Positions 602 through 34,749 of a stretch of DNA of 64,000 bases are shown here, piece after piece. Positions within the stretch are counted from its first letter, which is position 1. Every line of letters starts with the position of its first letter. The position numbers were made by a program, and so were the translations under genes. The notes beneath the pieces are model-generated. The model worked only from the letters and a program-made list of their open reading frames with translations. It did not search any database and was not told the DNA's origin. The stretch covers positions 5,146,001 through 5,210,000 of the forward strand of contig NC_045131.1 in assembly GCF_007655135.1 (NCBI RefSeq). The letters are read 5' to 3'. This stretch comes from Punica granatum (taxonomy: Eukaryota > Streptophyta > Magnoliopsida > Myrtales > Lythraceae).

Positions 602-4833
<4,232 letters not shown>

Positions 4834-5836: not shown

Positions 5837-7498
5837 ATGGAAGAGACTGGGGGGAGCCACTTTGAGTCACCGACTCCTCATTTCTTCAAGATAATACATC
5901 CTTACTCACTTCGACTCGGGAAGATTGTAAGTTTGCTCCGTTCTCTGTTCTCTCACGTTTGGCTCAGTTCTGTTTCTCTTTTTTCTGATCTAGTCTTGGG
6001 ATTAATGCAATATATAAGGAGGAGGGGAATGAAAATTCTTAGTTGGATTACTTGTGTGTTCAAGTTTCTTATCTTCAAAACCTAAGTATGAAGTATTCCT
6101 TTTTTTTTTTTGGTTCTGGCTTGGAAAGGTTTCTGGATAATCCATCTTATTTACTGTACAGTAGATTAATGAATATTATGGTTCGGCGTAACTGGCTTTC
6201 CTTGTGATGGATGTATGCTTTTGTAGTTTCTTTTTTCTTGTTTGATTGATAGGTGCTTTTGTAGTTTCTTTGTTTGATCTGAGTAAGCCGATTTTATATA
6301 TCTTGTACAGTCCATTCCTAAGAGGTTTGTCAGGAAGTACGGGGACAATCTTCCGAATGCAGTGATTCTCAAGGTCCCAAACGGCGAGAGCTGGAAAGTT
6401 TGGTTGGAAAAGTGTGATGATGCCTTCTGGTTACAGAAAGGGTGGCCAGAGTTCATAGAACATTACTCTATCGAGGAACAATATCTCGTGAACTTCTGCT
6501 ATGTGAAGAAATCTGTTTTCCAAGTGGTAATATTTGACAAAAGCGCAACTGAGATAGAATACCCGCTGAAATCAGCCAATGTCAAAAGGGTTAAGCCCGT
6601 TCCTGAATCTCTTTCTTCGGAGATGGAGGAATCTGCTTATAAAACTTCACCCGGAACCTTGTCAGGTTATGAGGTGGAACAGGAGATTGAATGTGGTCAT
6701 GTTGAACCTGATGTCGAATCGTCCTCATCAGAGATGGAGGAGTCAACAGATAACTCAGTCAGTATCATGAGAGATCTTGAGCCTGCAATGGAAATTAGCT
6801 GCGACAGTGATGACCTGACTCCGAACTCTGGTCTCGAATCAAGACGTTCCAAGCTTGGGGAGAAGAAGCTGAAGCACCGGAAAACACTAAATCATTCATC
6901 GAAGCAGTTGAGAGGCATGAATCTCACTCCATACTTCATATGATTCTGCCGTTTCCCAGTCTGTTTGATTGAATTTAACTCTAGGACTTGAATAAATTCT
7001 TTGTAATGCAGGCAAAGCAATAAATGTTGCTCCGCCAGTTTCTCTGACTCGGAGAATTCTGAAGTTTGCCAAATCATCCGAAGCAGTGAATTTCAGGTCA
7101 GAGTATCCCTTCTTCCACGTTCTCATGACTGAATCGTATGTGAAGTCTGGAAGTGTGGTAAGTTTCCCCCAACAAAGGTTTGAGGTCTGTGTTTTGCAGT
7201 GTTACTATAATATCAAACCGTTCTAAGCCTCAATTTTTTATAGGCTATCTCAAAAGGATTCATCGTGAGGAATAATTTAGAGGAAGCGCCACAAAAAGTC
7301 ATGCTTCGACATTCTGACAGATTGTGGCCTGTGAGCATGAACTACTATAAGGCAAAAGCTCGTGGAGGCAGCTTATGCGGGGGATGGGCAGCATTTGTGA
7401 GGCAAAACCACATAAAGGTCGGAGATATCTGTATTTTCGAGCTCGTCAAGAAGAAAGGGGTCATCTTCAACGTGACTGTATTGAGATGCGGTGGTTAG
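5837..7498 (+). CDS. B3-domain (REM/VRN1-like) DNA-binding protein, copy 1
   Basis: Four exons (5837-5926, 6311-6914, 7012-7157, 7244-7498) join in frame to 364 residues. The product is a predicted nuclear DNA-binding protein of the plant REM subfamily, with two B3 domains. Domain 1 covers about residues 14-112 (HFFKII...SIPKRFVRKYGD...GWPEFIEHYSIEEQYLV...ATEIEYP). Domain 2 covers about residues 260-364 (EYPFFHVLMTESYV...LWPVSM...LCGGWAAFVRQNHIKVGD). An acidic Ser/Glu-rich linker joins them. ATG 5837 is the first methionine in the frame. The intron after exon 2 appears to use a GC donor (6915) with a normal AG acceptor; this is the junction that keeps phase 1 as in the two downstream paralogues. 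It is the most diverged member of the local cluster. VRN1 relatives bind DNA with little sequence specificity; the targets here are unknown. Confidence 0.85.
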
Positions 7499-8180: not shown

Positions 8181-10133
8181 ATGGCTTCTGCCCACACCCA
8201 CAGAGGAAGAAGAGCTGTGAAGCTCCAGGACGGATTCTTCAAGTCGCCAACTCCCCGGTTCTTCAAAGTCATGGTCAGAGAGTTGCTCCATCGTGGAAGA
8301 ATCGTAAGTTCTATTCCTCTCTTTGCAGCTGCCCTCTGCCTGCTCCATGTCATTCTCCGGCCATTTGAGGAACGTCTGTTGCTCTGATTCTTAGAAATCT
8401 TATTTCTGCATTTGCACAGAGTATGAATGTGTGTCTCTTTGAGTTGCTCTCCAGTTTGCTCGTTAGTAACTCGGTTTTTGATTTCTATACAGATGATTCC
8501 CCGAAAGTTTATCTGGAAATACGGGGATGTTCTCTCGGAGCTGGTGCTGCTCAGGGACCCCAGTGGGGAGTCCTTTGAAGTGCAAGTGGAAGAGGCTGAA
8601 GGCAAAGTTTGGCTCGGGAAAGGCTGGAGAGAGTTCGAAGAGCATTACCCTATCGAGGAGGGGTCATTCCTCGTGTTTGAATTGGAGGGCAACAACCTCT
8701 TCCATGTGCTGATATTGGGCATGTGTGCCACAGAGATTGACTACCCCACTGTCAACCGCAGTCAAGACCCACAGCTGGAGCCAAGCGATGAATATCTTCC
8801 ATCTGAGACAGAGGAAACCAGTGATGATGATTCTCCAGTGAAGAGCACAGATGCTTCCAATTCCGAGCCTGAACAGAAGAGAAGTCGATGTGGGCAACCG
8901 TTTCAACATTCGAAGCCCTCTAAACTTCCAACGGAAGACAGTGATGATTCTTCTACATATTCACCAAGTGTGCAATCAGAATCGGAATCGGAATCTGAAC
9001 GTTTAGGATCTACAAAAAGGAGCACCACAAGGTTAAGGAAAGAGGCGAAGCAAGGCCCTTCATCGCATTTGGCAGCCGGTATAGTTTCATGGTCCATCCA
9101 ATTCCTGCCTTTTCATTCTCGTCCCGAATTATCCCTGAAGAGGGGGAAAAACTTTTTCCAACAGGCGGTTCAGGGATTAAGAAGAGGACTATTGGGCTAC
9201 AGAAACGGGTGAAACTCGGCCATTCATCGCGACGAGCAGCTGGTATGAATTTTCATAGACCATTCATTTCCTGCTTTTTCGTTCTCGTCCCGAATTCTCT
9301 ACAATGTAGAAACTTTTTTCCAAAAGATGGATCGTAACATAACTCAGTTTATTTCTGTTATGTCGTGCTTGATGGTTGTAAAAAACTGCCATTTACATTT
9401 GTTTCAACGAATCAGAGTAGTTTATTTGCTTCCATCGTTTAATTTCACGAAGCAAAATTTCAGCATATGTTTTCATATCTTTTCTGTATGATTTTTAGGT
9501 TGCAGGCGTCCATATGTCAATCTGCCTTTACCTCCGAGCTCTCACAAAGCACTCGAGGCGGCTAAAAGGTTTCAAACCAAGTTTCCTGCATTTTGTATTC
9601 AACTGCGACCAACCTACACGAGGAGCGGAGGCGTGGTATAATTTCCAGCCCTTTATATCAACTTGCACTTTCAAAAGTAATGAAAAACAAAGAATCAGAA
9701 GCTCGTCTTTCGAACAAGGTTTTAGTTCAACAAATATCATGTAGTATCTTTGTAGAGGTTTTAGTGTTATGTTACTGTTTTATTGCTTCGGACAATAAAG
9801 CTCGACAATGGATCTTGCTAAATAGGATAAACTAGACCAGCTTGTTACGAATCCTGATTGTGATAATGTTTTCAGAGCATATGTTCCTCGTTCATGAAGA
9901 GGAACAATTTCAAGCCGACGAAGGGTCCTGTGTATCTGAATCTGAAACATAGGGGACGGTCATGGCGTGTGAAGATGTTTTGCTACACAAAGGAACACCG
10001 AGGGAAGCTCTGTGGTGGTTGGGGCGCGTTCATAGAAGAAAACTCTCTGCAAAATGGAGATGTCTGCGTATTTGAGCTTGTTGAGACGAACATATTCAGA
10101 GTTCATTTCTTCAGGTGTTCGACTTATGCTTAG
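8181..10133 (+). CDS. B3-domain (REM/VRN1-like) DNA-binding protein, copy 2
   Basis: Five exons (8181-8303, 8493-9078, 9165-9242, 9499-9635, 9876-10133) give 393 residues. Domain 1 spans about residues 22-125 (RFFKVMVRELL...MIPRKFIWKYGD...GKGWREFEEHYPIEEGSFLVFEL). Domain 2 spans about residues 275-393 (CIQLRPTYTRSGGV...SWRVKMFCYTKEHRGKLCGGW...NGDVCVFELVE). Between them is an acidic Ser/Glu linker with a basic patch. Exon 3 (78 bp, phase 1-1) has no counterpart in copy 3. It looks like a tandem duplicate of the 3' end of exon 2, so inclusion or skipping would not shift the frame. The acceptor of exon 4 is taken as AG 9497-9498; the later AG at 9505 would break the B3 frame. The frame is open upstream to an ATG at 7989. 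The start at 8181 was chosen because it matches copy 3 (MASxxxRRxAVKLQ). Confidence 0.85.
9000..9330 (+). repeat. tandem duplication of an exon end plus following intron in B3 copy 2
   Basis: Two adjacent units of about 164 bp share the exon end (TCATCGCxxxxGCAGC), the donor region and the following intron text (CGTCCCGAATT and the AAACTTTTTCCAA stretch). The first donor is at 9079 and the second at 9243. The second unit became exon 3. Confidence 0.7.
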
Positions 10134-11659
10134 ACTTTGCACATGGGCTTGAAGACTGAGTTCAGCATGCTGTTTTTCTATTTCGATGCCAGACTTGCAG
10201 TTTCAATAGGTGGTCTTTTACCATCTCTTTTATAAGTTGTGCCTAGGATATTTTTCGTACTGTTTCAAGGATGATTAATCTCTGCAGAATGATGATGTTT
10301 AGGCGTTGAAGATTTCCCTCTTTAATATCGAATAGCAACCCCGTAGATTCTTAGTATGCTGAGGTAATTGTCATTAGTTTGTTCTGATATCCCCATTCCC
10401 TGCTGCTTGTGCCAGTCGGAACTAGAAAAACCTGATCTATAGCACCCGAAATTCCATTCTTGATCGTGTCAAATCTATGTCATGGATCCATTAAACGATC
10501 TCTAATCTGTCTATAGTTCGGGTTGAACTTCATGGAAACCCCATGTGATTTTTTACTTGTGCAGATGCTCTTGCCTACGAGAAGAAGGTACTTCTTGTAG
10601 CAAACAGGGCACATGGTTTGTGGACCCCAATATCAATACGAGCGTTTTAAATGACCCTACTCCGATATCATTATGTGCATGAGTTTAGGGGCGATGCGAG
10701 TATGGTGTCTTATTTAAAAGAAACAATTGTTCTGCAAAAACATATCAATAAAATAAATGTGAGAATAATTCTCTTACCAACATCATCGAAAAACAGATAA
10801 ATCGCATGAATCCAGTAGATCTTCTAGTAGTATAAACTCAAGTCTTCCATCGCAAGGGGGCTTTAACATCCTGCTATCGCCAGAGCTTCTATCGAGACCG
10901 ACATTGCCTGAGCTACGAGTGTTTCTTTGCAGGACGAGCACAAGGCACTCGGGAGATTATAAGGCTTCAAATTTCAAAGGGTTCGAGTGATCTTTCGTGA
11001 TCAATCGCTTAAAACGACTTCTTGTAGCTGTTAATTAACTTATGTGCGTATATGTACGGACGGTTTGATCTCATGAAAAAGGAAGAAGCAAATTGGCCTT
11101 GTTATCAAAGACGAGAGATGAAATAAGAAGAAACATTCTCGTGAATCATCAGTTGACCGGTCAAAAGTAAAATGATTTCTTCCCATTTTTGTTTACATAA
11201 ATATGCATATATTTGTCAGGCGTGAAGATTTCAATACGGTTTACTTCAAAGATTTGTATATACTTCAGTAAAACATAAGATATTTCAGATCGACCGACCA
11301 AAACGTTAAGCTTCATTTGAAATCGTCGGCGATCTAAGCCTTAAGAGAAAAAAAAAGGGGTAATAAGCAAGAGCTGCAATGCTCTTCTCAGCCTTCTAAA
11401 GCGGTAAAATTCGATCCACCTGCTAAGGTTAACCATGGAGCTCTGGCAATTTCACGGACTCTACACTCTACAGTCTTAAGCCAAATTTGGAATATCCCGA
11501 ACCTGATGAGAAGCCGCTTCGGACGTCGAAGAGAATAAATTTGAGCTATTCATCCCAGGAACTGGGAGGGTCGCTGCTTAGTATTCGGGCAAAATTGTTT
11601 AACTAATTATCCGAACGGAAGGATGTGCCACTGCTGTGAAGATTAATACGGATAATCCA
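10134..11659. other. duplicated downstream flank of B3 copy 2
   Basis: Large parts, especially 10260-10580 and 10800-10980, align by eye with 15360-15650 and 15930-16340 downstream of B3 copy 3. This shows that the duplication unit ran well past the B3 gene. No intact gene remains here. Confidence 0.6.
10858..10898 (-). pseudogene. relic of the MSVSIEALAMAG-type gene
   Basis: On the minus strand the sequence reads MSVSIEALAIAGC and then stops. It matches the first 12 residues of the protein at 15961-16284 with one change, and the flanks match too. The rest of the frame is lost, so this is the decayed partner in the duplicated unit. Confidence 0.65.
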
Positions 11660-12095
11660 TCTCACTTGAATCACCAAAGCTGCCAATGGATTCCGAATGA
11701 CACACCCTTTTTTCGAGTTTGGATATATCCATCTCACTCGAGTCGTCCAGTTGATGAATTTCCCAAACTTCTCTTAACTAAACACCTAGATCGGGCAGAT
11801 ATTATTGTTCCAGAATACTGATATAGGATAAAAACTATTTTTCTTTTCTATAGAAATACGACTGATAAGAATAGTTTCCACAGACTATACTGGAAAATTT
11901 CATAAAGATGGATTCGGTGCAGAAGAGGGTATGTTATACTTAGAAGCTGAGTATTGTGAATGAATCTTGGCCCGCGAAGTTATACGATTATGATAATCAG
12001 GAAACTGCAAAGAGGCTCTCGTCTTAGCGAGGGAGATGTCTTCGAGCTAATATCAAGGAAGGGCCTCGTGTTCGATGTTACGATTTTCAAGCGTG
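11660..12095 (+). pseudogene. decayed B3-domain gene relic
   Basis: Three fragments in different frames follow the order of the second B3 domain: TPFFRVWIYPSHSSRPV with EFPKLLL (about 11700-11780), ESWPAKLYDYDNQ (from 11962), then LSEGDVFELISRKGLVFDVTIF (about 12024-12090). The order matches PFFHV, WPV(K/S)M and GD(I/V)C(I/V)FEL in the intact neighbours. In-frame stops and frame breaks separate them. The text at 11500-11570 also recalls the linker end of copy 1. Confidence 0.65.
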
Positions 12096-12140
12096 AGTCT
12101 AGACTATATAAAGGAGAAAAATGTTTGAGCATTTTGCAGT

Positions 12141-13135
12141 ACAGATTAATAGCAAAGGGTTGATTGATCACTAAAACTAAAAGACGAGCTGTTTTTGCAG
12201 TACGTCATTTACGTTCCATAATATCCCAAAGTGAATTCTCGAGGGTAAACTAAACTCTCACGTTGCGTTTGATTTTATAATAGGATTTTAAAATTAGATT
12301 TTGATTTTGATTTTGAGTGGTATAAATGGGATCCACCCTTCGACTTTGTATGAGTTATGTTGTTTTGTTGTGGGAAAAAGTGATATAAATGGGATTCACT
12401 CTTTGATTTTGTATGAGTTATTTTGTTTTGTAGTGGGTAGAATTAAGTTAGAATTGTGATTCTAAAATAGAATCGCGAAACCAAACAGGCCCGTACCCCA
12501 AAAAAACAAAACTCTTTGTTTCCAAGGTATGACAAATTATCGTGGTCGTGCCGGACAAGTCAAATTAAACAAGGAGCTGGTTACGTTAATTATGATAACT
12601 AAAGCGATAATCAATTATTTATCAGTTCACGTCATTTACGAGCGTTTGCATACTTTATTATTTCAATCAATTTCAAATATTATTTAATTATTAAGGGCCA
12701 CGTTTTGGACTAATTTCTCATTCCGGGTTTAGTAATGGGGGCAAAAGTTTAAATTGCAAATTCCTTGGGGGTTGAATAACAGCTCTGGGAGGAGAAAGCT
12801 TCAGAGAGAGAGAGCAGATGAATAGTACAGTTTCATTTATGCAGCCGCAGCAACAACCTTCACAGTCACGCCATGGCAGCGAGTCCTCCGCCCTCTCTTC
12901 TTTGCCATGCCCTTGGTGTTGACTGTACTGTGTCTGTGTGTACTCTGTCCTCTTCTGAAACCGTCCATAAAGAAGAACAGAGTTGGCTTCAACCCATCAG
13001 TATACTCCATTCCATCAATATATTCTCGGAGTACGGACAAGAAGAAGGGAACCCCATTTGCAGAGTGGGCTGACAGGAAGTAGAAAGCTCCCTCTTTTCC
13101 TTTGAAATTTGAAAACCTGCGAGTTGATTGCATCC
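12141..13135. other. spacer before B3 copy 3
   Basis: It holds a degraded MITE-like element (next entry) and, from about 12790, a promoter/leader region similar to that of copy 2 (GA-rich tract, then GATGAATAGTACAG). No gene is recognised. Confidence 0.5.
12262..12494. mobile_element. degraded MITE-like element
   Basis: The left end GCGTTTGATTTTATAATAGG and the right end, whose complement reads GGGCCTGTTTGGTTT, are imperfect inverted ends typical of common plant hAT-type MITEs. Inside, a segment with ATAAATGGGATYCAC is repeated about 65 bp apart. No clear target duplication is visible, so the class is uncertain. Confidence 0.4.
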
Positions 13136-15081
13136 ATGCCAATGGCTTCCAAGCGCAGACGAGGAGCCGTGAAGCTTCAGCATGGATCCTTCCGGTCGGC
13201 GATCCCTCGGTTTTTCAAGGTCATGGTGGGCGAGTCGCTCGATCGCAGTAGAATCGTAAGTTCAGTCCTCTCTTTCTTCGTGATGCCCTCTGCCTTCTCG
13301 ATGTTATTCCTCATCCCTTCGCCGAAACGCTCATTGCTCTGATAACTGTGTCTTAGATAAATATTTCACTCTTTTAAGTTTCTGCCTGTTTATGCTCATT
13401 TGCTGGGTGGTAAGTTTGGTTTTGGTCCCTTTTCAGGAGATTCCGCCAAAGTTTATCAGAAAATACGGGGATCGTCTCCCGCATTTGGTGCTGCTCAAGG
13501 CCCAGAATGGCGAGTCCTTCCGAGTGAAAGTGGAAGAGGCTGAAGGGAAAGTTTGGCTCGGGAGAGGCTGGAGAAAGTTCGAAAGCCACTATGCTATAAT
13601 GGAGGGATCATTTCTCGTGTTTCAACTGGAACGCAGCGATGTCCTCCGTGTGCTGATATTCGACTCGAGTGCCACAGAGATTGCTTACCCCCCTGCAAAC
13701 CGTAGTCACAACCAACGGCCGATGCTGAACAATGAGGCAGAGGAATCTGGAGATGATGATGATGATGCTTTACTGGAGGGCAGAGATGCATCTGAGCCTG
13801 CGCAGAAGAGAAGCCGACGTAGTCGACGGTTTCAACGTTCAATGCCTACTAAACAACTCCCGATCGAAGACAGTGATGATTCTTCTACATATTTGCCGAG
13901 TGAGCAATCTGCAGAATCAGAATCTGAAACTGAAAGTTCAGAACTTGAATATAGGAGGACTACAAGTAGATGGAAACGGGCGACGCTGGGCCAGTCATTG
14001 CGAGGGGTAACTGGTGTGAATTTTCATTATCCATCCGTCTCCTGCTTTTTCCAATTCTCATTCCGAATTGTCTATCAGAAGCACAAAACCTTTTCCCGAT
14101 AGACGGGTTATAACATAACTTGGTTTATTTCTGATCTCTCTGTTTGATCATGGTGGTCAACAGCGAAGTTCTTGTGAAAAAAAAAAAAGGGCCGATTTAC
14201 ATTTGTTCTGTGAATCAAAATAGTTTATATGCTTCCATCTTTTATACGTAAATCTCAGGAAATAAAACTTTAGCATATGGTTTCAAATCTTTTCTGTATG
14301 ACGCAGGTCCGAGGCCTCGAATTGTGGAGAAGCCTCTACCTCCGAGTTCTCACAAAGCGCTCGAGGTAGCAAAGAGGTTCCAACCTAAGTGTCCTGGATT
14401 TCTAGTCCGGCTGCGAGCATCGTACGTGAGGAGCGGAGGCATAGTATGATTTCCAGCTCTTTTACGTTATATCGTACTTTTAAAATTAAAGAAAACCCAA
14501 AATATCTCAAGCTCATCTTTTTTACGAGGTTAACTGATACCTCGTGGTGTTTCTTTAGAGGTTTCAGTGATATGGTACTATTTTATTTCTTCGCACGACA
14601 AAGCTCAACAAAGGATCCAGCTAAAAATCTAGTCCTTTTCCTTTCCCAATAAATCGGCTTTGCTCTTTATATTACTAAAAACCGATCATCGAAACTCTAA
14701 TACAACCCCGTCACATCCGAGCTCGAAGACACCTCACCCAGAAAGCTACTCAAGTAAATTTTGTTTTAATAGTAAAAGAATTATTTCTACTCACTTGTTG
14801 CAAATTCCTGATTGTGATGATTTGTTCAGAGCATAAATTCCAAATTCATGAAGGAGAACAACTGCAGAACCGGGGAGGGTCTTGTGTATTTGATGCATAG
14901 GGAACAGCCGTGGCCCGTGAAGATGTTTTGCTATACAGAGGAACACCGAGGCAAGTTCTGTGCTGGTTGGCTTAAGTTCCTAAAGGAGAATCATCTTCGC
15001 AATGGAGATGTCTGTGTTTTCGAGCTCGTCAAGAAGAATGTCTTTGAAGTTCACTTCTTCAGGTGTTCAGCTTATTCTTAG
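13136..15081 (+). CDS. B3-domain (REM/VRN1-like) DNA-binding protein, copy 3
   Basis: Four exons (13136-13255, 13437-14013, 14307-14443, 14830-15081) give 361 residues. The layout matches copy 2 without its extra exon. Domain 1 spans about residues 23-127 (RFFKVMVGESLDRSRI, EIPPKFIRKYGD, GRGWRKFESHYAIMEGSFLVFQLE). Domain 2 spans about residues 240-361 (FLVRLRASYVRSGGI, PWPVKMFCYTEEHRGKFCAGW, NGDVCVFELVKKNVFEVHFFRC). The linker is acidic, with an Asp run and repeated Glu-Ser. ATG 13136 is the first methionine in the frame; a second at 13142 aligns with the start of copy 2. Identity with copy 2 is high in exons and visible in introns and flanks, which points to a fairly recent tandem duplication. 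A nuclear DNA-binding role is predicted from the family. Confidence 0.86.
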
Positions 15082-15960
15082 TCTGATCGATTTGAGCTTG
15101 ATGACTCGGTTGAGGTCTGTAGTTTGTCTCTTTCGATATCGGTATTGCAGTTGCTTAGGTAGTCTATTACGAACTCCATTATCAGTTTACTCTAGTATGT
15201 CATTTGTTCTGTGTCGGGATGATTCCTTTCATGCTTCAGTTACGAACTCCTTTATCAGTAACTCTAGTATGTCTTTTGTTCTATGTCGGGGATGATTCCT
15301 TTCATGCTTCAGTTACGAACTCCTTTATCATTTAACTCTAGTATGTCTTTTGTTCTGCGTCGGGGATCATTCATTAAATTGCTTCTATAGAATGACGACA
15401 TTTCGGTGTTGAAGATTTTCCTCGTTAATTTTGAATAGCAATCCGTAGATTGTTAATCTGTTGAAGAAATTGTTCTTGTTCGGATCTGTTATCTCGGCTG
15501 CTGGTGTTGATCAGAACTAGATAAACTGGATCTAGCACCTGAAATTCCACGGTCGGTCGATATTGTTCCATGAGGCGATCACTAATTTGACTACAGTTTG
15601 GGTAGAAATTCATGGAAACTTGAAACGACTTTTTTCTAGTGTAGATATGCACCAGGAAGCCCGGATTTTTCTCGTCTATCCTTTCACCACTGCCTTCGCT
15701 ACGACATTGATTGGTCACATCAATAATCGACTCCGATATCTTTTATGTGCATTTCAGCTGATTATCATTATGTGCTTTAGGTGCGAGTATTGTATATTGT
15801 ACAAGAGGAACAAGTGCTGTTCAATAATAGATCAATAAGATGAATGCAAGAATGAATCTCTGATCAACATCATCGCGGAAAAAAAAAAAAGAAGGATAAT
15901 TAACATGAATCCTTTAAGCCTGTAATCATATATGCTCCACTCTTCGGTCGCACGAGAGCT
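15082..15960. other. 3' flank of B3 copy 3
   Basis: It holds the 73-bp tandem repeat and sequence paralogous to 10260-10580. Open frames here lack any domain and look like chance. Confidence 0.55.
15168..15385 (+). repeat. three-copy tandem repeat, period about 73 bp
   Basis: Units start at 15168, 15241 and 15314, each opening TACGAACTCC and containing CTCTAGTATGTC and TGTTCTxxGTCGGG. The third unit decays after about 60 bp. It lies just downstream of B3 copy 3. The corresponding flank of copy 2 does not show the repeat. Confidence 0.8.
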
Positions 15961-16284
15961 TCAGCCTCCCGCTATGGAATTCATCGATCTCGAGGATGCG
16001 GGTGACTTCTTATTAGACACGTTCTGCCCTTCGACTTCAAGCTCGTGAAGATCTCTGGGGACTGGACTGTTTCCAATACGCGTCGGGCGACTCTTGGGTT
16101 TTCGAGGAGAGAAGCTCTCTGGTTTTGCAGATGCATTCCATGGGATCTCCGCTTCGCTATTATCTTCTTCTTCTTCTTCCCCAACCAGTAAATGAGCTGG
16201 TGGAGCCTCCCATTCCTCCCCATCCATCTCATAGTCGAGATAGTCGGCCCCTGCCATTGCCAAAGCCTCTATCGACACCGACAT
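15961..16284 (-). CDS. small acidic protein of unknown function (MSVSIEALAMAG type)
   Basis: A single open frame encodes 107 residues from the chosen ATG, or 129 from an upstream in-frame ATG at 16350. The N terminus MSVSIEALAMAG is followed by an acidic Tyr/Trp-containing segment (DYLDYEMDGEEWE) and PPAHLL, then a Glu/Asp run at about residues 36-45. The C-terminal half is basic and Ser/Pro-rich. I believe short plant proteins with this N terminus exist, but I know no function. Support comes from the conserved start in the relic near 10.88 kb, where similarity begins at this methionine. No signal peptide or membrane segment is seen. It lies tail-to-tail with B3 copy 3. Confidence 0.55.
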   Translation of the reverse strand: MSVSIEALAMAGADYLDYEMDGEEWEAPPAHLLVGEEEEEDNSEAEIPWNASAKPESFSPRKPKSRPTRIGNSPVPRDLHELEVEGQNVSNKKSPASSRSMNSIAGG

Positions 16285-17321
16285 TGAACGTCCCGCTAGT
16301 GCTTCTCTATAAGGTGAAAGTAATGCACTCAAGAAATTATAGAACCTCAATGCTTTCGGTGATCTTTTTGCGAGTGATTAATCGGCTAAGACGACTTCAT
16401 GTACCCGTTAATCTGCGTGCGTATATATACCAATGATTCGATCTCATGAAAATTGAAGAAGCAAATTAGCATTCTTATCACAGGTCACGGGTTTCATAAG
16501 AATCAAACTAGAGCTCTTAGGCTCCTCTTCAACAAGGAGGTGCTATTCAGAGAGAATGAATTAAGATGAAACATTCTCGTGATCACATGTTGACCGGCCG
16601 ATAGTAAAATAAATAAATATATAAATAAATCTGCCCATGATTTTAGAATAATACGCATTCATACATAATCTGGTGTCAGCAGTGATGAAATATAGTTGCG
16701 TGAAAAACTTATCTGCACTTCAGTTTATCTCGAGTTCGAACCTCCCAGAACATACAATACAATTTTCTGGATCAAGGAAGGCTAGAACTTGTCGAGAAGC
16801 TCTTGATTAAACTTTGAGGGAAGCCATATAATGTCGTGTTTATGTGAAGGAATTAGAGAATGCACGGTAGCTGAATTGCCCGTGCAAAGTTGGATCGTTT
16901 TGTTTTGATCTCACGGTTCGTTTTCCATTCCATCATACCACAGGTATGATCTGACGTTTAATGAAATATTCTTCATGCTCAAATTGAGTGTCTGCTATCA
17001 ACAAGAACGGGTCAAAAACGTAAAAGAGTCTCGTAAAAAATCAAAATGTTGAACTTTTGACCATTTCCTCTTCAAGACCAAATGGCAGCTTTCTTTGAAT
17101 TAATCAGCAGAATTTCAGCTCTGAAATTTCAATCCATATGCTCCCATCATACTGGAGAATTGCAAGGCGTTAAGCTGAGATCAAGAACGCCTCCATGTCC
17201 AAATGATATTTCATTATTCATCGTAACCGAAAAAATTACATGGGATCATCTTACAAGCTACAACTGCATGAAACGCGATAAGAACCAATCATCCTCGATG
17301 AACAATTAGAGCTCAGTGATA
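16285..17321. other. spacer between the small gene and the zinc-finger gene
   Basis: AT-rich sequence with no recognisable gene. Part (16330-16480) is paralogous to the 10.95-11.1 kb region. The right end is the 3' flank of the minus-strand zinc-finger gene. Confidence 0.5.
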
Positions 17322-19182
17322 TCAAGTATCAGAGAACATGCTGATGCCGTTTCCACTTCCCAATTCATTAGCTGGGGAAAGGATGTCCCGTAAGCAGTAA
17401 AAGTCGACCGAGCCGAACCCATCTAGCAACCTTTTGAAGATCCCGTCATCCAAAGAATTCCGGGTTAATTCCTCATCTTTCAACAGCATGTCCTCATCTT
17501 CTTCCTCCTCTACAGCAGTAGCCTCATTCCTCTTGTCGTCATCATCAGCGACAGCGGGCATGTGCCCCTCAAACAGGGCCATGTGCCCGAACAACTTGTC
17601 CTTCCTCGAGAAGCTCGCCCCGCAGGAGCACTTCCACTTGGCCTCACCACAGTGCTTCATATGGCTCCTCAAATCAGCCAACACAGAGAAGCTCTTCTTG
17701 TTGCAGCGGTTGCACGAGTACATCTTCGGGCAATGGCTCCTCTTAAAGTGATTCTTCACGCAGACCACAGACTTGAGAGGCCGAAACTTCTTGTGTGCCT
17801 TATTTCTGTTGCACCTGAAGATTGCAAATTCACAGTAATCAGAGACAGTACTCGAGGAGTAGATACTAACATGAATGAACTCGGAGTTTAAAGTAGAAGC
17901 TGGGATAATTGCTATGAGGCCAAGGAACTCCCCGAACCGGCAAAGAAGTTCTAATACACGCAAATTTTTATCAGCTTTACAACACTATACTCATGCAAGA
18001 AAATGTTAATCTTATCTTCTGTCAGTTCAGCAACCCTTCAAGTTTGCCTATATGTCAAGATGCTTATTCGTATCAGGCCACCCACGACACCTTATAAACC
18101 GGTGTCAAAGTCGAAATTCTGACAAACCGTGATTCACCGCATCCTCATACTTACAATAACAATAGTAATTTTAACAACTATAGATTGAACTCTGGCACAC
18201 AATCAAATATTATGCAATATTATTTTCAAATGGAAATGAGAAATTTTGATGAGTGAACCAGATCGAACGCAAAGTTAGACATGGCCGATCATTACGTCTA
18301 TCAGATTAAATCGTTCCTGAGTTGCAGGATTCTATTGATGACCACAAACTGATTCACATTCTATGATATGCCCTGATTCAGGAAATTCTAGCTTACTATC
18401 AGCAGACTGTAAACTTGACATTCAAAATCGAAACTTGACGATAGGACCAATAAGCGTTATTGGAAAGAATCAAACAGATATTCATCATAGTACCCCTCGA
18501 AAGGACACGAAAACCGGCTCCTCTTCGTCGAAGGAGAAGGCTCAGGGCACTGGCTATCGGGCCTGGCCAACGCCTCCGGGGTCTTGAACTGATTCCCGTG
18601 GGCTCTCATGTGCATCCTCAGGTTAGCGTCTCTCTTGAAACCCTTCCCGCAGATATCACAGAAGTGAGTGTGCTCCGCAAGAAGCTCAACGGAATCGAGC
18701 TCCACGATCTCGCAATCTCCGACAAGTTCATCCTTCTCGTCCTTCATCGTGGTGAGGACGCCCTCCTCGACCTTCAAATCGCCAGTAGGAGGCCTCCCAA
18801 TCGGGCTCTTGACCGGCAGCTTCCGGTCTCCGGACTCCTCCACGGCCGCCGCCGCCGCCGCCACCGCTGCAGGCTTGCTGCCGGGATTCTCCGGGGCCTG
18901 CTGAGAGCAGGAGAGGAGAGCGGCGCCATTGACGATGATCTGGTGGATGGCGGAGACGATCTCGGAGGAGACCAAGTCCATCTGCTCCCCGCTGAGGAGA
19001 GTGTTGCTGTTGAGCGACTGCGACAGGAACTGCTGCACGGAGTCCATCCTCATGCGGACTGTGGAGAGGTTGAGGAGCGGGACTCGGGGGTCAGCGCTGC
19101 CGACGGCGGGGCCGGAGGAGGACGAGGCGCCACCGGAGGGGAGCTCCAAGGGGATCTGGGGAGGTTCGCCGGAGTGTGCCAT
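17322..19182 (-). CDS. C2H2 zinc-finger transcription factor, STOP1/STOP2-like
   Basis: Two exons on the minus strand (19182-18494, then 17814-17322) join with a phase-2 GT-AG intron to 393 residues. The family (SENSITIVE TO PROTON RHIZOTOXICITY) comprises nuclear factors for acid and aluminium tolerance. Zinc finger 1 is [20 protein letters not shown] at about residues 173-192. The second finger is split by the intron (FSCPFEG, then [10 protein letters not shown]...[13 protein letters not shown]). Finger 3 is [20 protein letters not shown]. Finger 4 is [25 protein letters not shown]. These follow the order and spacing of STOP1. The N terminus has a short polyalanine run (about 106-113) and the C-terminal part is acidic. 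The length is nearer to STOP2-like proteins than to STOP1, which is longer as I recall. STOP1 itself is regulated by protein stability; nothing in this sequence shows that. Confidence 0.88.
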
Positions 19183-20544
19183 TGAGGAGATGGGGAGGAC
19201 GAGGAGAAGGGAGTCGAGGTTTTGAGTTTATGAGGAGGAGACGAGGGGCTATGGAAGTTCCCTTCCTCTTCTTCTTCTTCTCCGCCGTCAGTCGATGTGA
19301 ACCGATGTTGACTTTTAGGAGGACCTGTCGAGTGCCCGCCATGGCTGAAAGCAATGCAATTGCTCGCTCGAAGGTTGCGCATTAGCTTAACACGTGGCGG
19401 AAGGACTGGGGGAGAGTCGATATATGCGAAATAAACAAATTCAATAATAATAAAAGAAAAAAAAAGAAAAAAGGGTTAACCTAAACTATTGGAAGAAAAT
19501 GGACTAGAAAGGAGAGAAAAAATTAGAAATATTGAGACGGATTAAAAAGACAATTATTAAGTTATTCTTTTTTTCGATAGACAGAAGGTGATTATTTCAA
19601 TCATTAAACTATTGTGCGTTAATCTAATCTAATAATGAGCATAAATGGCAGCACACGTTGTTGAGTGTGGCTCGAATTCTCACCCCAAGACTTGAAAGCA
19701 ATAGAAAGACTTAGGCTACGGACAATTGATTGCAGCATTGCTAACAGCCAACTACAATTTTGAATAGGCCGAAGAGGACAGAAGCCACAGACAGTCGACT
19801 GTAGTAAGTCGCGCAGTTAATTGTAGAAAGTAGCATAATCCCTGAGAGAGATCTAAACAATCAGCATCAAATTTGACTAGTTTGTTTATTTCCTTGCTCA
19901 GCTAATCTATATCCCTGATTCATTTCTTCTCGTACAAGAACACATTGGGGGGTGAGAGGAAAAGTGAGACTGAAAAAACTTTGTAATCGGGGTTTTGGGA
20001 AAACAGTTTGTACTTCATGGCTTCGTCGCTCATAATAAAAGAAGAACCAGCAAAGCTTCTTTTGTCGTGGACGTACTGCTGGCACACCGCTGGCCTGAAC
20101 CGCGTATACGAGTGTGCAAGCTTCTCTTCTCTTATCTCATTTTAATTGTTTAGTCGAGATTATCGTGAGTTAGATCCATTTCGATTCTTACAAATCGATC
20201 CCAACACACATAGTAAAGATATAGATAATTTTGGAAAGTGAAAGTTTTCTTTACATGATGCATGGGTTTTTTTATATATTTGTATTGGATACATATATTT
20301 ACCTTTACATACACAATTTTGAGTTTGCACTTGGAGTTACTCATGTCGTGGAAAATGTAGGAATTAGGAAGCCGGTGCTTTGTATGCTCATAGAAGTGTG
20401 TCTAGAGTAATATAAGTGCATCATGAGCTTGCTAAATGAATAATCATAAATCATTAATGTAAAATATTATTTGAAATGAATTCCACTGCATAATGCAATT
20501 ATTATTAATTTAAAAAAATCTAGGAGGGATTTAAATATAGAGTA
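19183..20544. other. upstream region of the zinc-finger gene and spacer
   Basis: The first ~200 bp are the presumed 5' leader and promoter (minus strand). A CATATATCG motif near 19415-19425 is a weak TATA candidate. The rest is AT-rich without gene-like sequence. Confidence 0.5.
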
Positions 20545-20820
20545 GGGAAAATAACCTTATATGGCACAATTTTTACCTTATTTTCACTTCATATCATGTT
20601 TTTAAAAGTTGTCGCGATTTAGCACGAATCACCATTTTATTCCAGGATCTAGCACACCATTAAACTCCGTCTAAAAACCGTTAAACACCGTTAGACGAAA
20701 TTTAACGGTGTGCTAGATCCGAGAATAAAATGGTGATTCGTGCTAGATCGTGATAACTTTTAAAAACGTGCTAGGAAGTGAAAATAAGGTAAAAACTGTG
20801 CTATATGAGACTATTTTTCC
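20545..20820. repeat. foldback MITE unit, left copy
   Basis: A near-palindrome of 276 bp. Arms contain AGCACGAATCACCATTTTAT and its inverse, with GATCTAGCACACC and GGTGTGCTAGATC near the centre and TAAATTTCGTCTAA-type sequence at the hinge. It is clearly the same family as 22079-22343. Confidence 0.88.
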
Positions 20821-20832
20821 TCTTTTTTTTTT

Positions 20833-22078
20833 GAAGATTCACTGCACATAAAAATATGAAACTTAGTGTGGAGCTTTATAATAATATCAGCAACGTCGGA
20901 TAAAAGTTTCACCTCGTTTTGAGATCGGACGATTCACAAAAGCTATCTAAATCACAACACCGAAAAAATAGATAAATATTTTTTATCTAAAGATTCACTA
21001 TCTAGAAAAATCTGAAAATATGTGTAGAACTTTACAATAACATCAGGAACATGGGATAAAAGTTTCATCTCGTTTTGAAATCGAACGATTAATAAAAACT
21101 ATTAAAATCGAAACACAAAAAAATGGGTAAATATATTTTATCTGAAGATTCACCACCCAGAAAAATCTGAATATCTGTGAGAAGCTTTATAATAATGTTA
21201 GGAACATGGTGAAAAAGTTTCATGTCGTTTTGAGATCGGACAGTTTACAAAAACTATCAAAATCAAAACACCAAAAAGAAGAGTAATTATTTTTTATCTG
21301 AAGATTCACCACCCAAAAAATTTTGAAATTTTGTGTGGAGCTTTATAATAATATTAGGAATGTTGGATAAAATTTTCACCTTATTTTGAGATCAGATGAT
21401 TCACAAAAACTATCTAAATCACAACACCGAAAAAAGAGGTAAATATTTTTTATCTGAAGATTCACAATCCAAAAAAATCTGAAAATATGCGTGGAGCTTT
21501 AAAATAACATCAGGAACATGAGGTAAAAGTTTCATCTCGTTTTGAGATCAAGCATTTAACAAAAACTATCAAAATCGAAACACCGAAAAGATGGGTAAAT
21601 ATATTTTATCTAAAGATTCACCGCCAAAAAAATCTGAATATCTGTGACGAGCTTTATAATAATGTTAGGAACATGGAGAAAACATTTCATCTCGTTTTGA
21701 TATCGGACAGTTCACAAAAACTATCAAAATCAGAGCACCGAAAAGAAGAGTAATTATTTTTTATCTGAAGATTCTCCACCCAAAAAAAATTAAAATTTTG
21801 TGTGGAGCTTTATAATAATATGAAGAACGTGGGGTAAAAGTTTCACATCATTTTGAGATCGGACGATTCACAAAAACTATCTAAATCACAACACTAAAAA
21901 AAGAGATAAATATTTTTTATCTGAAGATTGACATCCCAGAAAAATTTGAAAATTAGTGTGAAGGTTTATAATAACATTAGGAACATGGACTAAAAGTTTC
22001 ACATCGTTTTGAGATCGTACAGTTCGCAAAAATTATCAAAATCAGAACACCGAAAATAGTAGTAAATATTTTTTTAAT
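20833..22078 (+). repeat. eight-unit satellite array (156 bp) with three-unit higher-order period
   Basis: Monomers begin with GAAGATTCAC or a variant at 20833, 20989, 21144, 21300, 21456, 21612, 21767 and 21923. Spacing is 155-156 bp. Monomers 1, 4 and 7 share CTATCTAAATCACAACAC. Monomers 2 and 5 share ATGGGTAAATATATTTTATC. Monomers 3 and 6 share AGAGTAATTATTTTTTATC. This gives a higher-order period of 467-468 bp. The last unit is more diverged and truncated by the right MITE unit. Confidence 0.9.
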
Positions 22079-22343
22079 GAAAAATAGCCCCATATAACAC
22101 AGTTTTTACTTTATTTTCACTTTCTAGTACGTTTTTAAAAGTTGTCACGATCTAGCACGAATCACCATTTTATTCCCGGATCTAGCACACCGTTAAATTT
22201 CGTCTAAAGGTTTTTAGACGGAATTTAACGGTGTGCTAGATCCGGGAATAAAATGGTGATTTGCGCTAGATCGTGACAACTTTTAAAAACGTGCTAGGAA
22301 ATGAAAATAAGGAAAAAATTGTGCTATATGAGGCTATTTTCCC
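22079..22343. repeat. foldback MITE unit, right copy
   Basis: A near-palindrome of 265 bp that starts GAAAAATAGCCCCATATA and ends TATATGAGGCTATTTTCCC. It shares the central GATCTAGCACACCGTTAAAT block and its inverse with the left copy, and its arms match each other better than those of the left copy. Confidence 0.88.
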
Positions 22344-22417
22344 TATATAGTATTATTGCATGCGGGAAGCTTCCTGCACGTTTCATGCTTAAACAAGTAC
22401 TTTCTTCGATAGAGCTT

Positions 22418-22874
22418 TGTTAGGGACCAGAAAATTGGTCTGACCCGTTCGGCTTGATTTACTATTTTGGACCCACATTGATACTCTAGATTAGGTAATT
22501 AAATCCTATTAAGTATATTTCATCATCTATATCTCATAACATCTCTGATATTATCTCTAAAATATTCTGTTAATATATCATATGAGATATTATTCTATCT
22601 CTAACCACATTTATGACAAGTACATCTACTTGTTATTTATTATTAAATATTATGCACATATTACAATACCTTGATACAGATATTTTGAGACTCCTATAAA
22701 TAGCTCTCTATATACCTCTAAACCCTAAGTCCAATTCTTCTACCTTTCTTGATATATTCTCATTTAAGTATCGAAAAGGGAAATCGGGATTCTCTCAAAT
22801 TCTTCCCCTTTTTGAAGGTCACTCGAAGTTCGTGGTCTGCACATTATCAAGATTCAAAAATCGAGATCATAACA
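22418..22874 (+). repeat. 5' LTR
   Basis: The unit starts TGTTAGGGACC and ends ATCATAACA. A TATA-like CCTATAAATAGC near 22693 is followed by CTCTAAACCCTAAG, consistent with the LTR promoter. It aligns with 25756-26214. Confidence 0.85.
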
Positions 22875-24025
22875 TTGACGCCGTCTATAGGAAACGGTAC
22901 AAAAAGTCATTTGCATCGGCTGTTTTCCACCACATCGAGAAGTGACAATTCTTACAACAAGGAGCGAAGCAAACCTCAACTTGGGAATGGGGGATTGCGT
23001 ATCCCTCACGGCAAGTTGCAGGGATTAACGCGGCGAAGTCGTGCAGTAGGGTTACCTCGTGACATGACGACCACGATTCTTCTCGCGAAAGATATAAAGC
23101 ACCATCGCTCTAGGGATATCACAAGCTAAGTTTCTGCTTCTCAACTTTTGTTCTCATCATCGATCAAAAAGAATATTTTGATATTTGAAATTTAAATCAA
23201 GGTTTACTTTGTGAATCTTGACATAAATCCGATGAATTACCCTCAATTTCGTCGCATCACAATTTTTTGACTTTCCTTGACAGAATTTAATATCTATTAA
23301 GAAGAGAAAATTTTTTGTTTGATGAAATAAAATATTAACATAATGTTTGATAACGAAGTTAAGTTTGATATAAGGAAATGAACACAAAAGTAGTTAGAAA
23401 AAGTATGTGAGAGAATTTAAAGAAGAATATTAAAAAGTAATAATTTTGTCGTTAAATTGAGAAAAAAGTGTTAAAATTGAGGAAAAATGTTGAATAGTTC
23501 AGAGAAATTAGTATTAACAATTAATTTAAATAATATATAAGAAAAAGTATGAGAAAGAATTTAAAGAAAAAAATAAAAAAAAAGTAAATTGTTAAATTGA
23601 GGGAAAAGTAAAATTAAGTTATGTTAATTTTAATTTTTGTAAACAAACATACCATAAGCTTTCTCGATTCGATACTCGGATATTAATTACTTGAATCCTT
23701 ACATCTAGTTATCCATTAAGCCTAAATTTCCCTCACGAATTACATTGTTTATCTCTCAAAGATTAGGGATTTGAAAAATATTGAGCGACTGGGGGCTGAA
23801 CCATATTTTCATCCGGTACGACATCCGTCAATGATGCTAACATCTCATCCTCGAGGATCTTAGACTCTTTGCCATCAACATAAGGGAGATGTGACAATCT
23901 TGATCATCCTCGTGAAAACAATTGCACCCTCAAGTTGATCGTGGATCAATCCATCCATTATGCAAGAAAAAGAGCTGCCATGACATATCACGCGCCGACT
24001 TTCCATATCGCTCGACAACCCACGC

Positions 24026-25018
24026 AAGGTTGTCAGAATCGCAATTCTAGGTAGAATCGGTCAAGGGTCGTAGAATCGTGAATCGTGATTCGAATCGTGC
24101 ATCGTAAGATTCTACCTGTAATTAAAAAATAATATATATATATATATATATGTAGCATACTTTCCTCAGCAAAAAAATCAATCATTCTTCATTCAAATAA
24201 AGACCATAAACAACAAATCAACAAGCTATTCAGCAACCATCACTTATCTTCCATCAAATTCCGCAAGCTATTCAGCGGCAACAGTAACACTCGGAGCCAG
24301 CATCAACAACCAAACAAAATTTTCCGATTCAGCGGGCAGAGAGAGCTCAAAGAGTTAAAGCCTCACCTTGAAATTGACCGAGACCAAGATAGCTCCAAGA
24401 AAGCAAAGCTCAAGCTGAGACAAGTGGAGATGGAGACCAGGAGGAAGAGCGAACTCAAGCTGAGATTGAGGCGGAGGCGGAGGCAGAGGAGGAGGCTTCA
24501 ATCGGAGAAGCGAAGACGGAGACCGAGAGGGGGAGCGAGCTCAAGTTGAGATTGAGGCGGAGGCGGAGGCTTCAATCGGAAAAGCGGAGACCGAGACCGG
24601 GATGGGGAGAGAGCTCGAGCTGTAGATTGAGGCGGGGTGGAGAAGGAGGCGTCGGAGATTCGGAGAAGAACGCCAAAGAAAGCTCAGTTCTTCGAACTGA
24701 GTCTCTGAAGTTTGACCCCGGTTCTCTGTAAGGGTAAAGTCGAGAAGAAGGGAATTAAAAAAAAAAATTGGGTGGGCTTAGGCTGCTTGATGGACCGACA
24801 GAGTAAATGGGCTTGGCTTGGGCTGCTTGGCTAGGCTTGGGTCATGTTTGGGCTGGCAGTGGCAACACTTTGTAGAATCGGGTGAGTCGCACGATTCCAC
24901 GATTGAACGATTCAACTCCCGATTCCAATCCGATTCTACTTCTCCGATCCACCAGGTGCAATCGGAATCGATTGGCCTCCATTATTCTACGACTCGAATC
25001 ATGATTCTAAAAACTATG
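24026..25018. mobile_element. nested Mutator-like non-autonomous element with 9-bp target duplication
   Basis: A perfect 9-bp repeat AACCCACGC flanks the element (24017-24025 and 25019-25027) and interrupts LTR-element sequence. Removing element plus one repeat rejoins CGACAACCCACGCGTCGC. The left end AAGGTTGTCAGAATCGCAAT and the complement of the right end (CATAGTTTTTAGAATCATG) are only partly inverted. Both ends are dense in GAATCG/CGATTC motifs. The middle (24400-24740) is GAGGCGGAGG-rich and keeps a short open frame, but no transposase is visible. Confidence 0.75.
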
Positions 25019-25196
25019 AACCCACGCGTCGCTCGAGGACCCATACTTGAGGCAATCATTCTCATAAATGAAAAAACTTCCATCCAATGCACCATCTTTC
25101 TTGCAAGTTGAGTATAAACTCCAGCTTTGACAATATGCTCGCGTCACGTGGGTACCACCATCGCCCCAACTCTCTGAGAACATAGGCCTCTAGTTT

Positions 25197-25625
25197 CTAC
25201 ACTGGTGGATTTGTGCTTTTTACACAGAAAGATCCCGATAAGCCTTCTCTTTCTACAACGAAAGGGCCCTTGCTTTCTATTGGGATGGGTTTTTTCACCT
25301 CTCGTTGAGGTTTGCGTTTCTCGCTTTCTACATCGAGAGTACGGTGGCCTTCGCTTTCTATAGTGAAGGGCCCCATGCTTTCTATGGCGTGAGGATTCCT
25401 CACATCCATTTAGAGACCACGACCATCATTTTCTACGACGGTGGATCTTGGCATTCGTTTTCTATAACAAAAGGTCTAATGATTTCTACATCGTAGATCT
25501 CCTAATCTCTGCACTAAGGACCATGACCTTTGCTTTCTACATCGATGGAATATTGGCGTTCGCTTTTAATGGTAAAGGTCCCTTCGCTTTCTACAGCGAC
25601 GAAATTTCTCACATTAAAGGGCAAA
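25197..25625 (+). repeat. degenerate motif-repeat tract inside the LTR element
   Basis: About eleven occurrences of a GCTTTCTAYANCGA-like motif recur every 25-45 bp (for example near 25250, 25275, 25325, 25353, 25376 and 25539). They encode recurring (A)FYxE/D fragments in one frame. The spacing is irregular, so this is not a simple satellite. Origin is unknown; it may be a decayed repetitive coding region. Confidence 0.6.
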
Positions 25626-25755
25626 ACAGACTTGATGCACGACGTCACTCCGGCCACAACATGAAAAGGCCATTGCCTAAGATGTGACATCAACAACGAT
25701 GTTGATATAATCCCTTGAACTCTCGAAGCTCGAGCTCACATGATTAGGGGAGTTA

Positions 25756-26214
25756 TGTTAGCTACCATAAAATTGGTCGACCCGTTCAGGCCGATTGACC
25801 ATCCTGGGCTCACATTGATACTGCAAATTGGATAACTAAATCCTATTGAATATATTTTCCTATCTATATCTCATAATATCTATCATATTATCTCTATAAT
25901 ATTCTGTCAATATATCATATGAGATATTATTCTATCTCTAATCACATATATGGCAAGTACATCTACTTATTATTTGTTATTAAATATTATACACAGATTA
26001 CCATATCCCGATACAGATATCCCATGACTCCTATAAAAAAACTCTCTAGGTACCTCTAAACCCTAAGTTCAATTCTTCTACATTTATTCGATACATTCTC
26101 ATTTAAGTATCGGAGAGAGAAAATCGAGATTCCCTTCCGTTCTTCTCCCTTTTGAAGGTCAATCGAAACTTATGGTCTGCACATGATTAAGATCCGAAAA
26201 CCAAGATTCTAACA
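25756..26214 (+). repeat. 3' LTR
   Basis: The unit starts TGTTAGCTACC and ends GATTCTAACA, preceded by the purine tract AGGGGAG. It aligns with 22418-22874 over its whole length, with visible substitutions that suggest an insertion that is not recent. Confidence 0.85.
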
Positions 26215-27556
26215 TGCTTCACTAAGACGATCAACCCTAACTTTTTAAAGTCTCGATATATGGTAAAATTCCTTAGCAACTCCAAAGGTGCATGTGTGAA
26301 ATTAAAATACCAAGTGATTCATGCTGAAAGATGGTAAATTAAGATTGATATCTTGTGCCTTATAACTCGAAATTTTAGCTTTAATTTTCGATAAAATTAA
26401 ATGGCTTTTTTTAAAAAAATATTTGATTGGAACCCGTCATCTATCTCAATCCATTAAGGAAAATTGGTCGAATTCCATCTTTGAAGTTATTGTGCCTCCA
26501 CTAGTTGGGCCTTACTGGGCTTTTTATCTCCACACGAATGGCCCAAGCGCTTGACCATGCCCAAATTGTTCCAGAGGTATCTCATTGGGCCGGTCCAAGT
26601 GGGCCTCTTCAGGCCTAATGTGATGGGCGAGCTCTACATTTCCTATGCCCCCGAAGTTCACGGTATCTCGCTATGCAATGATAGATTCATTACAGCGGGT
26701 CTTAACTAAACCGCTAGTGAGATTTGCTTATAGCGAGACAATCGAAAAGAATATTACATAAGTTAACTTATAGAGCAAGACGAATTAATATGCCGTAATT
26801 TCACGAAGAACTCTGCCTAGTTCACGCAGTACTTGCCAACCGGATTCCTGAGGATTTTTCTAGAGTTGCAAAGGTGATGTTCAAGTAGTCCTTGGTGCCC
26901 CATCAATAATTGCATCTATCCAATAAAGGAATAACTAATCCTAGAATAATTCACCAAATGAAGCATGCATGTTGAATTTACTAGTCAATTAATCGAATCT
27001 TTGTACGTGTTGTTTTCTATAGGATGTCTTTCAGTGCCCGCTTCCTATTATGAGATCTCTCGCTTCATAAGAAGATCGTTGAGCGACTTCGATCAGTCGA
27101 TTCCTAGGTAGATCTCTGGCATGCCGCTACCTAGCTTCTACGAGCAAAGGCGAACTCATGATCTTCCGACAAGAATTTTGCACGAAATTGAAACCTTTAT
27201 AAGCATTGCTTCAAGACACATAAGCTTCTAATCAAACCCTTCCCTCGTACTGGAAAAGGTCTATTTCAACGTGGAACTTGTGCAAAGTCTACATCATACT
27301 ATGCGTATACGTATATGCATTTACATATGATGATGAGTTACTTCATATGTCAAAGCCAGGAAAAGACAGAAACCTCGGCTAGTCTCCTGAGCAGGTTGAG
27401 AATGTGGGTTTCTTGAGTCAATTTTGATTATGACCCGATCCACTGATCCGATTCATCAGCTTAATTGTTCTAGAAGTCATAAGGATGAATTAGAAAAGTC
27501 GTAGCAGGAGATAAAATTGCTTATTCATTTCGTTTTGTATTGGTGTATATATAGAT

Positions 27557-34270: not shown

Positions 34271-34749
34271 CAGTCGTCTCCACTCACGACAACACTCCTA
34301 TTTCCACAGTCTGTCTCCCTCTCTTTTTTTTTTTTCTCTCTCTCTCTCTCTGTCATATCATCCGGGGAGAGAGAGAGATGACCAACGTGCCGCCTCCGTA
34401 TTTGCTACCCCTTAAAAATTTACTAATTATTCGACTATTAAATGAAATACTCTTGGAGATTCAACTGTGCTATAGGATATGACCTCTTATTTTTCAGCGT
34501 GAGCTCTGATATTCGAAAAACTCCGTAGTAGGTCCGACTAATGCAATTCACCTACTTATAAGGGATAAAGCTCTGATCTCTCTTCTTATTCCTATCACAT
34601 GGACCAATTATATGGAGCAAATAGTATGCCCAGTTGGCCTTTACCTTACTATTCATGGAATGTACGGTCGATTATCTTCAAGCATGGGGACAACTGACAA
34701 GCGTACGTGTTAGTGAAAGTGTATCTATATATATATATATATAAAAGGA

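What the first reader, a model, noticed from the sequence alone, without database searches (positions are those of the whole stretch)
20536..22352. Composite mobile element: two foldback MITEs carrying an eight-unit satellite array as one insertion
Seen: inverted outer ends GGGAAAATA / TATTTTCCC, near-identical outer 9-bp flanks (TATAGAGTA / TATATAGTA), and no matching flank at either inner MITE border. Known: 9-bp duplications mark Mutator-type insertion. Inference: the whole MITE-array-MITE block moved as one non-autonomous unit, so a transposase could spread a ready-made satellite array. That would be a direct route from a transposon to satellite DNA.
Basis: partly seen in the sequence, partly recalled or inferred. 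Interest (0 to 1): 0.75.

Follow-up and report, generated by a model that had tools for sequence, protein, structure and literature searches.

The report
Foldback transposon with tandem-repeat interior
A 1.8-kb stretch of a pomegranate-like plant genome looks like one inserted jumping-DNA element whose two hairpin-shaped ends enclose eight copies of a 156-base repeat; such repeat-carrying elements are already known, so this is a neat new example rather than a new kind of thing.

Summary
Two near-palindromes (20545-20820, 22078-22343) enclose an eight-unit, 156-bp array (20823-22074). The outer ends are GGGAAAATA/TATTTTCCC, flanked by TATAGAGTA/TATATAGTA (8 of 9 match, chance about 3-8e-4); neither palindrome has a flank pair of its own. 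Single insertion is well supported: the array abuts both palindromes, no monomer lies elsewhere in the window, and the right palindrome is an inverted copy of the left (5 of 5 two-against-two sites, not all independent). It is better described as one non-autonomous, Mutator-type foldback element whose terminal inverted repeats are themselves palindromes than as two MITEs with cargo. The same window holds a 334-bp foldback (4020-4353) with a perfect 9-bp duplication. The array order A-B-C-A-B-C-A-X means a three-unit block was duplicated after the monomers had diverged. Not shown: that a ready-made array was spread. No second copy could be sought in the host genome; that search failed as busy 13 of 13 times. 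The transposon-to-satellite route is already in print (Tetris; Xenopus MITEs). New member of a known kind.

The parts
20536..20544 (.). left copy of the 9-bp target-site duplication, TATAGAGTA
   Evidence: 8 of 9 match to 22344-22352; chance 3-8e-4
20545..20820 (+). left terminal repeat: a 276-bp near-palindrome, outer end GGGAAAATA, inner end TATTTTTCC
   Evidence: hairpin fold; its two arms 83.3% identical over 138 columns
20823..22074 (+). interior: array of eight monomers of 155-156 bp in the order A-B-C-A-B-C-A-X
   Evidence: TRF; shift identities; monomer matrix; tree with 100% support for the B and C pairs, 91% for the split that sets A apart
22078..22343 (-). right terminal repeat: a 266-bp near-palindrome, an inverted copy of the left one, outer end TATTTTCCC, inner end TGAAAAATA
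   Evidence: 87.7% to the left one when inverted, 85.4% when direct; 5 of 5 two-against-two sites pair outer with outer and inner with inner arm
22344..22352 (.). right copy of the 9-bp target-site duplication, TATATAGTA

Best explanation
The block 20545-22343 is one non-autonomous foldback transposon of the Mutator type. Its ends are about 270-bp terminal inverted repeats, each itself a near-palindrome, and its whole interior is an eight-unit 156-bp tandem array. A Mutator-family transposase, supplied from elsewhere, would have cut at the outer GGGAAAATA ends and inserted the unit, making a 9-bp duplication (structure shown; transposase and event inferred). The array grew in at least two stages: old tandem duplication of the monomer, now about 20% diverged, then duplication of a three-monomer block, most simply by unequal exchange (order shown, mechanism inferred). 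Whether growth preceded or followed this insertion is not determined.
For: Outer 9-bp flanks match at 8 of 9 (chance 3-8e-4) and inner ones do not. The terminal 9-mer occurs in the 64 kb only at the two outer ends. Array and palindromes are separated by 2 and 3 bp, and BLAST finds no monomer elsewhere in the window. All 5 two-against-two sites in the four-arm alignment group outer with outer and inner with inner arm, 0 either other grouping. The window holds another element of this style, 4020-4353, with a perfect 9-bp duplication ATAAATAAA and GGG/CCC ends. Array order ABCABCAX: same-type monomers 86.5-91% identical, other pairs 75-83%.
Against: The duplication is imperfect (1 of 9 differs) and lies in AT-rich DNA. 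Only one copy is known; mobility was not demonstrated. No transposase was found: Pfam was run on 8 of the 11 ORFs of 150 aa or more listed, and none of the 8 matched one; shorter or interrupted frames were not scanned. Mutator membership rests on the 9-bp length and the long inverted repeats only. By raw identity the right outer arm is closer to the left inner arm (90.2%) than to the left outer arm (88.7%), because the left outer arm has many changes of its own; 3 of the 5 grouping sites lie beside the hairpin apex, where the halving of the palindromes and the alignment are least sure. That grouping would also be seen if two members of one asymmetric MITE family had inserted in opposite directions.
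Confidence: 0.82

Rival explanations
1. Two solo palindromic MITEs of one family inserted separately, in opposite orientation, at the two edges of an older array.
For: Each palindrome has recognisable ends on both sides: the inner ends GGAAAAATA and TGAAAAATA are only 1 and 2 bases from the outer GGGAAAATA.
Against: No own duplication at either palindrome (3 and 4 of 9), matching outer flanks, array abutting both and absent elsewhere in the window. Both inserts would have had to hit the array edges exactly.
Confidence: 0.08
2. A composite transposon in the bacterial sense: two mobile MITEs came to flank an array and were then moved together by a transposase acting on the outer ends, the inner ends being suppressed or decayed. 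(This overlaps with the best explanation, since it too is one insertion.)
For: Both palindromes have two recognisable ends; the inner ends share a change from the outer ones.
Against: No solo copy of this family was seen in the window, and the host genome could not be searched.
Confidence: 0.12
3. A foldback element with one or a few monomers inserted, and the eight-unit array grew at this locus afterwards, so that no ready-made array was ever moved. (A sub-case of the best explanation, not an alternative to a single insertion.)
For: The ABCABCAX order shows later duplication of a three-unit block. Repeat number differs between two allelic copies of Tetris (PMC4079207).
Against: The three-unit copies (86.5-91%) are about as diverged as the matching arms of the two terminal repeats (88.7 and 92.5%), so the duplication is not recent; but terminal-repeat divergence does not date the insertion.
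Confidence: 0.4

Closest known systems
Tetris foldback element, Drosophila virilis (PMC4079207; abstract, section 10 and part 1 of section 16 read)
   Same: Non-autonomous, long inverted repeats, TSDs of 8-10 bp, internal tandem repeats of about 220 bp that fed satellite arrays; suggested by its authors to belong to Mutator.
   Different: Tetris repeats lie inside each inverted repeat and share 37 bp with its outer domain; here the array is the whole interior between the inverted repeats, and no clear similarity to the ends was found.
MULEs with multiple terminal inverted repeats (PMC3310237; abstract and sections 3.1 and 4.2 read)
   Same: Extra copies of the terminal repeat inside the element, a recognisable duplication at the outer ends and none at the inner copy.
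   Different: There most extra copies (48 of 61 tomato elements) are in tandem with the outer one on both ends; here each end is a palindrome, so its inner half is inverted, and the interior is a tandem array.
MITEs with tandem repeats in Xenopus (Hikosaka and Kawahara 2004; Scalvenzi and Pollet), seen only as passages of the review PMC12628747
   Same: A MITE with an internal array of variable copy number, proposed as a source of satellite DNA.
   Different: miDNA4 of Scalvenzi and Pollet is a Tc1/mariner MITE, not Mutator-type.
Tm1 Mutator/Foldback family of root-knot nematodes (PMC3169594; passages only)
   Same: Composite inverted repeats with internal redundancy; 45 of 53 complete elements have 8-10 bp duplications, most often 9.
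   Different: The repeated motif is about 14 bp and lies within the terminal repeats.

Membership tests
Mutator-type (MULE) non-autonomous element | target-site duplication of about 9 bp | tested here: met
   8 of 9 at the outer borders; chance 3-8e-4
Mutator-type (MULE) non-autonomous element | long terminal inverted repeats | tested here: met
   276 and 266 bp, 87.7% identical when inverted
Mutator-type (MULE) non-autonomous element | terminal sequence shared with an autonomous MULE that encodes a transposase | not testable with these tools
   host genome search failed as busy
Foldback element | long inverted repeats able to fold back | tested here: met
   each terminal repeat folds nearly end to end, and the two are inverted copies
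Foldback element | tandem repeats inside the inverted repeats themselves | tested here: inconclusive
   exact TAGCAC (either strand) occurs 6 and 5 times in the two palindromes, within each half at steps of 28-30 bp (once 58), 0 times in the array and 36 times in the whole window; no longer unit was tested
MITE | many near-identical dispersed short copies | not testable with these tools
   no further copy in the window; genome not searchable; 4 patterns in viral contigs and 1 in prokaryote contigs gave 0 hits, as expected for a plant repeat (39)
Satellite DNA | long homogeneous arrays in the genome | not testable with these tools
   only eight units seen, 75-91% alike

The most novel reading that the evidence does not exclude
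A eukaryotic counterpart of a bacterial composite transposon: two individually mobile palindromic MITEs acting together as ends that move a multi-unit, higher-order satellite array as cargo, seeding new arrays at gene-rich sites such as the upstream flank of a gene.
Probability: 0.12. Interest if true: 0.6.

Novelty: new member of a known kind. Interest (0 to 1): 0.3.

Why it matters
It is a compact plant example in which the whole interior of a transposon is a tandem array with higher-order structure. If further copies with the same A-B-C-X order and their own duplications exist, it would show directly that a ready-made array, not just a monomer, can be moved by a DNA transposon. If copies differ in repeat number, it would show array growth inside the element.

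Tried and rejected
Array derived from the terminal repeats (as in part for Tetris): local alignment scores of the array to the two palindromes, both strands, were reached by 33, 6, 27 and 3 of 100 shuffles, so not supported; the last value is borderline before any correction for four tests. Protein coding in the block: stop-to-stop frames within it reach at most 81 aa, and two of them found no relatives in the protein collection. Known RNA family: none at gathering threshold in 20400-22500. Three 11-letter motifs from the ends and arms in print: 15 papers hold at least one, 14 listed; judged by title and start of abstract only, none is about a transposon. Other literature searches: (0 papers); no listing title or abstract start names this element. 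Two pomegranate genome papers listed (PMC5999313, PMC7061868; two occurrences of 'mite' each) were not opened, and of the barley MULE paper PMC9168764 only the abstract was seen. Subscription papers and repeat databases were not searched.

Dating the insertion from terminal-repeat divergence was considered and rejected, since these repeats are not made identical at insertion (general knowledge).

Full report
Where it is. An ORF in the window (18457-19182, minus strand) matches a Punica granatum SENSITIVE TO PROTON RHIZOTOXICITY 1-like protein at 100% over 95% of its length; among the 120 best of 805 hits the next named plants reach 72% or less, two unnamed entries 73 and 75%. The window is therefore from pomegranate or a very near relative. 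The block lies about 1.35 kb upstream of the ATG of that ORF.

What is there. Left palindrome 20545-20820, array 20823-22074, right palindrome 22078-22343. The outer ends are GGGAAAATA and TATTTTCCC, which occur nowhere else in the 64 kb on either strand. The flanking 9-mers agree at 8 of 9; the frequency of that is 3.2e-4 at the same spacing across the window, 8.2e-4 among AT-rich pairs and 3.6e-4 among pairs from the 400-bp flanks, the real pair included. Neither palindrome has a flank pair of its own (3 and 4 of 9; at best 5 and 6 when the inner border slides). A window-wide scan for 9-bp flanks plus inverted ends found 14 pairs, the block among them. Three of the others are pairs of arms within the two palindromes and five are AT- or A-rich. 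Twenty shuffles gave 53 pairs in all, 0 beginning GG, against 3 of 14 in the real window; one of those three, 11480-13453, was not examined further.

One element, not two. Splitting each palindrome in half gives four arms. Identities: outer-outer 88.7%, inner-inner 92.5%, left outer-left inner 83.3%, right inner-right outer 88.7%, left inner-right outer 90.2%, left outer-right inner 83.5% (138 columns for left outer-left inner, 133 for the rest). All 5 sites that split the arms two against two join outer with outer and inner with inner. A further 25 two-state sites are changes in a single arm, 11 of them in the left outer arm, which is why raw identity puts the right outer arm slightly nearer the left inner one. 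Three of the 5 sites lie beside the hairpin apex, two of them adjacent, so they are not fully independent. The palindromes are best read as inverted copies of one palindrome whose arms had already diverged. BLAST agrees (87.7% inverted, 85.4% direct), and so do the asymmetric loop sequences. This alone would also fit two oppositely inserted members of one family. It is the combination with the outer duplication, the missing inner ones and the confinement of the array that favours a single unit.

The interior. Nothing but 2 and 3 bp separates the array from the palindromes. It is closer to itself at a shift of three monomers (86.6%) than of one (79.7%). Monomers 1, 4 and 7 (86.5-89.1% alike), 2 and 5 (87.7%), and 3 and 6 (91.0%) form types A, B and C; monomer 8 is 75-82% like all others. 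The tree gives 100% support to the B and C pairs and 91% to the split that sets A apart; the place of monomer 8 is unresolved (42%; 200 bootstraps). Order A-B-C-A-B-C-A-X follows simply from A-B-C-A-X by one unequal exchange between the two A units (inference). No clear similarity of array to terminal repeat was found (33, 6, 27 and 3 of 100 shuffles reach the observed scores). The motif TAGCAC recurs at about 30-bp steps in the palindromes and is absent from the array; these could be transposase binding sites (inference).

How it most likely works. A transposase supplied in trans recognises the outer ends and moves the whole unit, with the interior as passenger. The superfamily assignment rests on the 9-bp duplication and the long inverted repeats; [quoted passage not shown] A control in the same window, the 334-bp foldback at 4020-4353, has GGG/CCC ends and a perfect 9-bp duplication, with a two-copy 30-bp repeat near its hairpin apex (4138-4198).

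What could not be shown. No second copy was available. The host genome search failed as busy 13 of 13 times, and the DNA collections that did answer (viral and prokaryote contigs) are not where a plant repeat would be expected. Mobility of the whole block, its copy number, and the timing of array growth relative to insertion remain open. No transposase was seen in the 8 of 11 long ORFs given to Pfam.

Known or new. Foldback elements with internal tandem repeats and 8-10 bp duplications (Tetris), MULEs with extra terminal repeats and duplications only at the outer ends (PMC3310237), and MITEs carrying satellite arrays (review PMC12628747) are all in print. The combination here, palindromic terminal repeats with an interior made wholly of a higher-order array, was not seen in the parts of papers read, but the search was not exhaustive. 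I rate it a new member of a known kind.

Noticed in passing
4011-4362: A 334-bp foldback element (4020-4353) with GGGCAAATTACA / TGTAATTTACCC ends, a perfect 9-bp duplication ATAAATAAA, and a two-copy 30-bp tandem repeat (4138-4198) near its hairpin apex.
   Followed up: partly
34722-35398: Two inverted copies of about 240 bp (78.5%) with a spacer of about 200 bp, each end carrying a (TA)n run; perhaps another inverted-repeat element inserted in a TA run.
   Followed up: partly
22412-26215: Old LTR-retrotransposon-like pair of direct repeats (22412-22875 and 25750-26215, 82% identical; TGTTAG and CTAACA at the outer ends), starting about 60-65 bp right of the block; the longest stop-to-stop frame listed there is 138 aa.
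   Followed up: partly
8206-16610: Duplicated region of about 3 kb (8.2-11.2 kb and 13.2-16.6 kb, aligned pieces 68-84% identical) with a B3 DNA-binding-domain ORF in each copy; a further B3 ORF at 6362-6943.
   Followed up: no
37403-37991: Direct repeat of about 139 bp (89%), copies at 37403-37541 and 37854-37991; nature not determined.
   Followed up: no
11480-13453: A pair with 8/9 flanks and GG-starting inverted 12-mers (2 mismatches) that the scan turned up; not examined and possibly chance.
   Followed up: no
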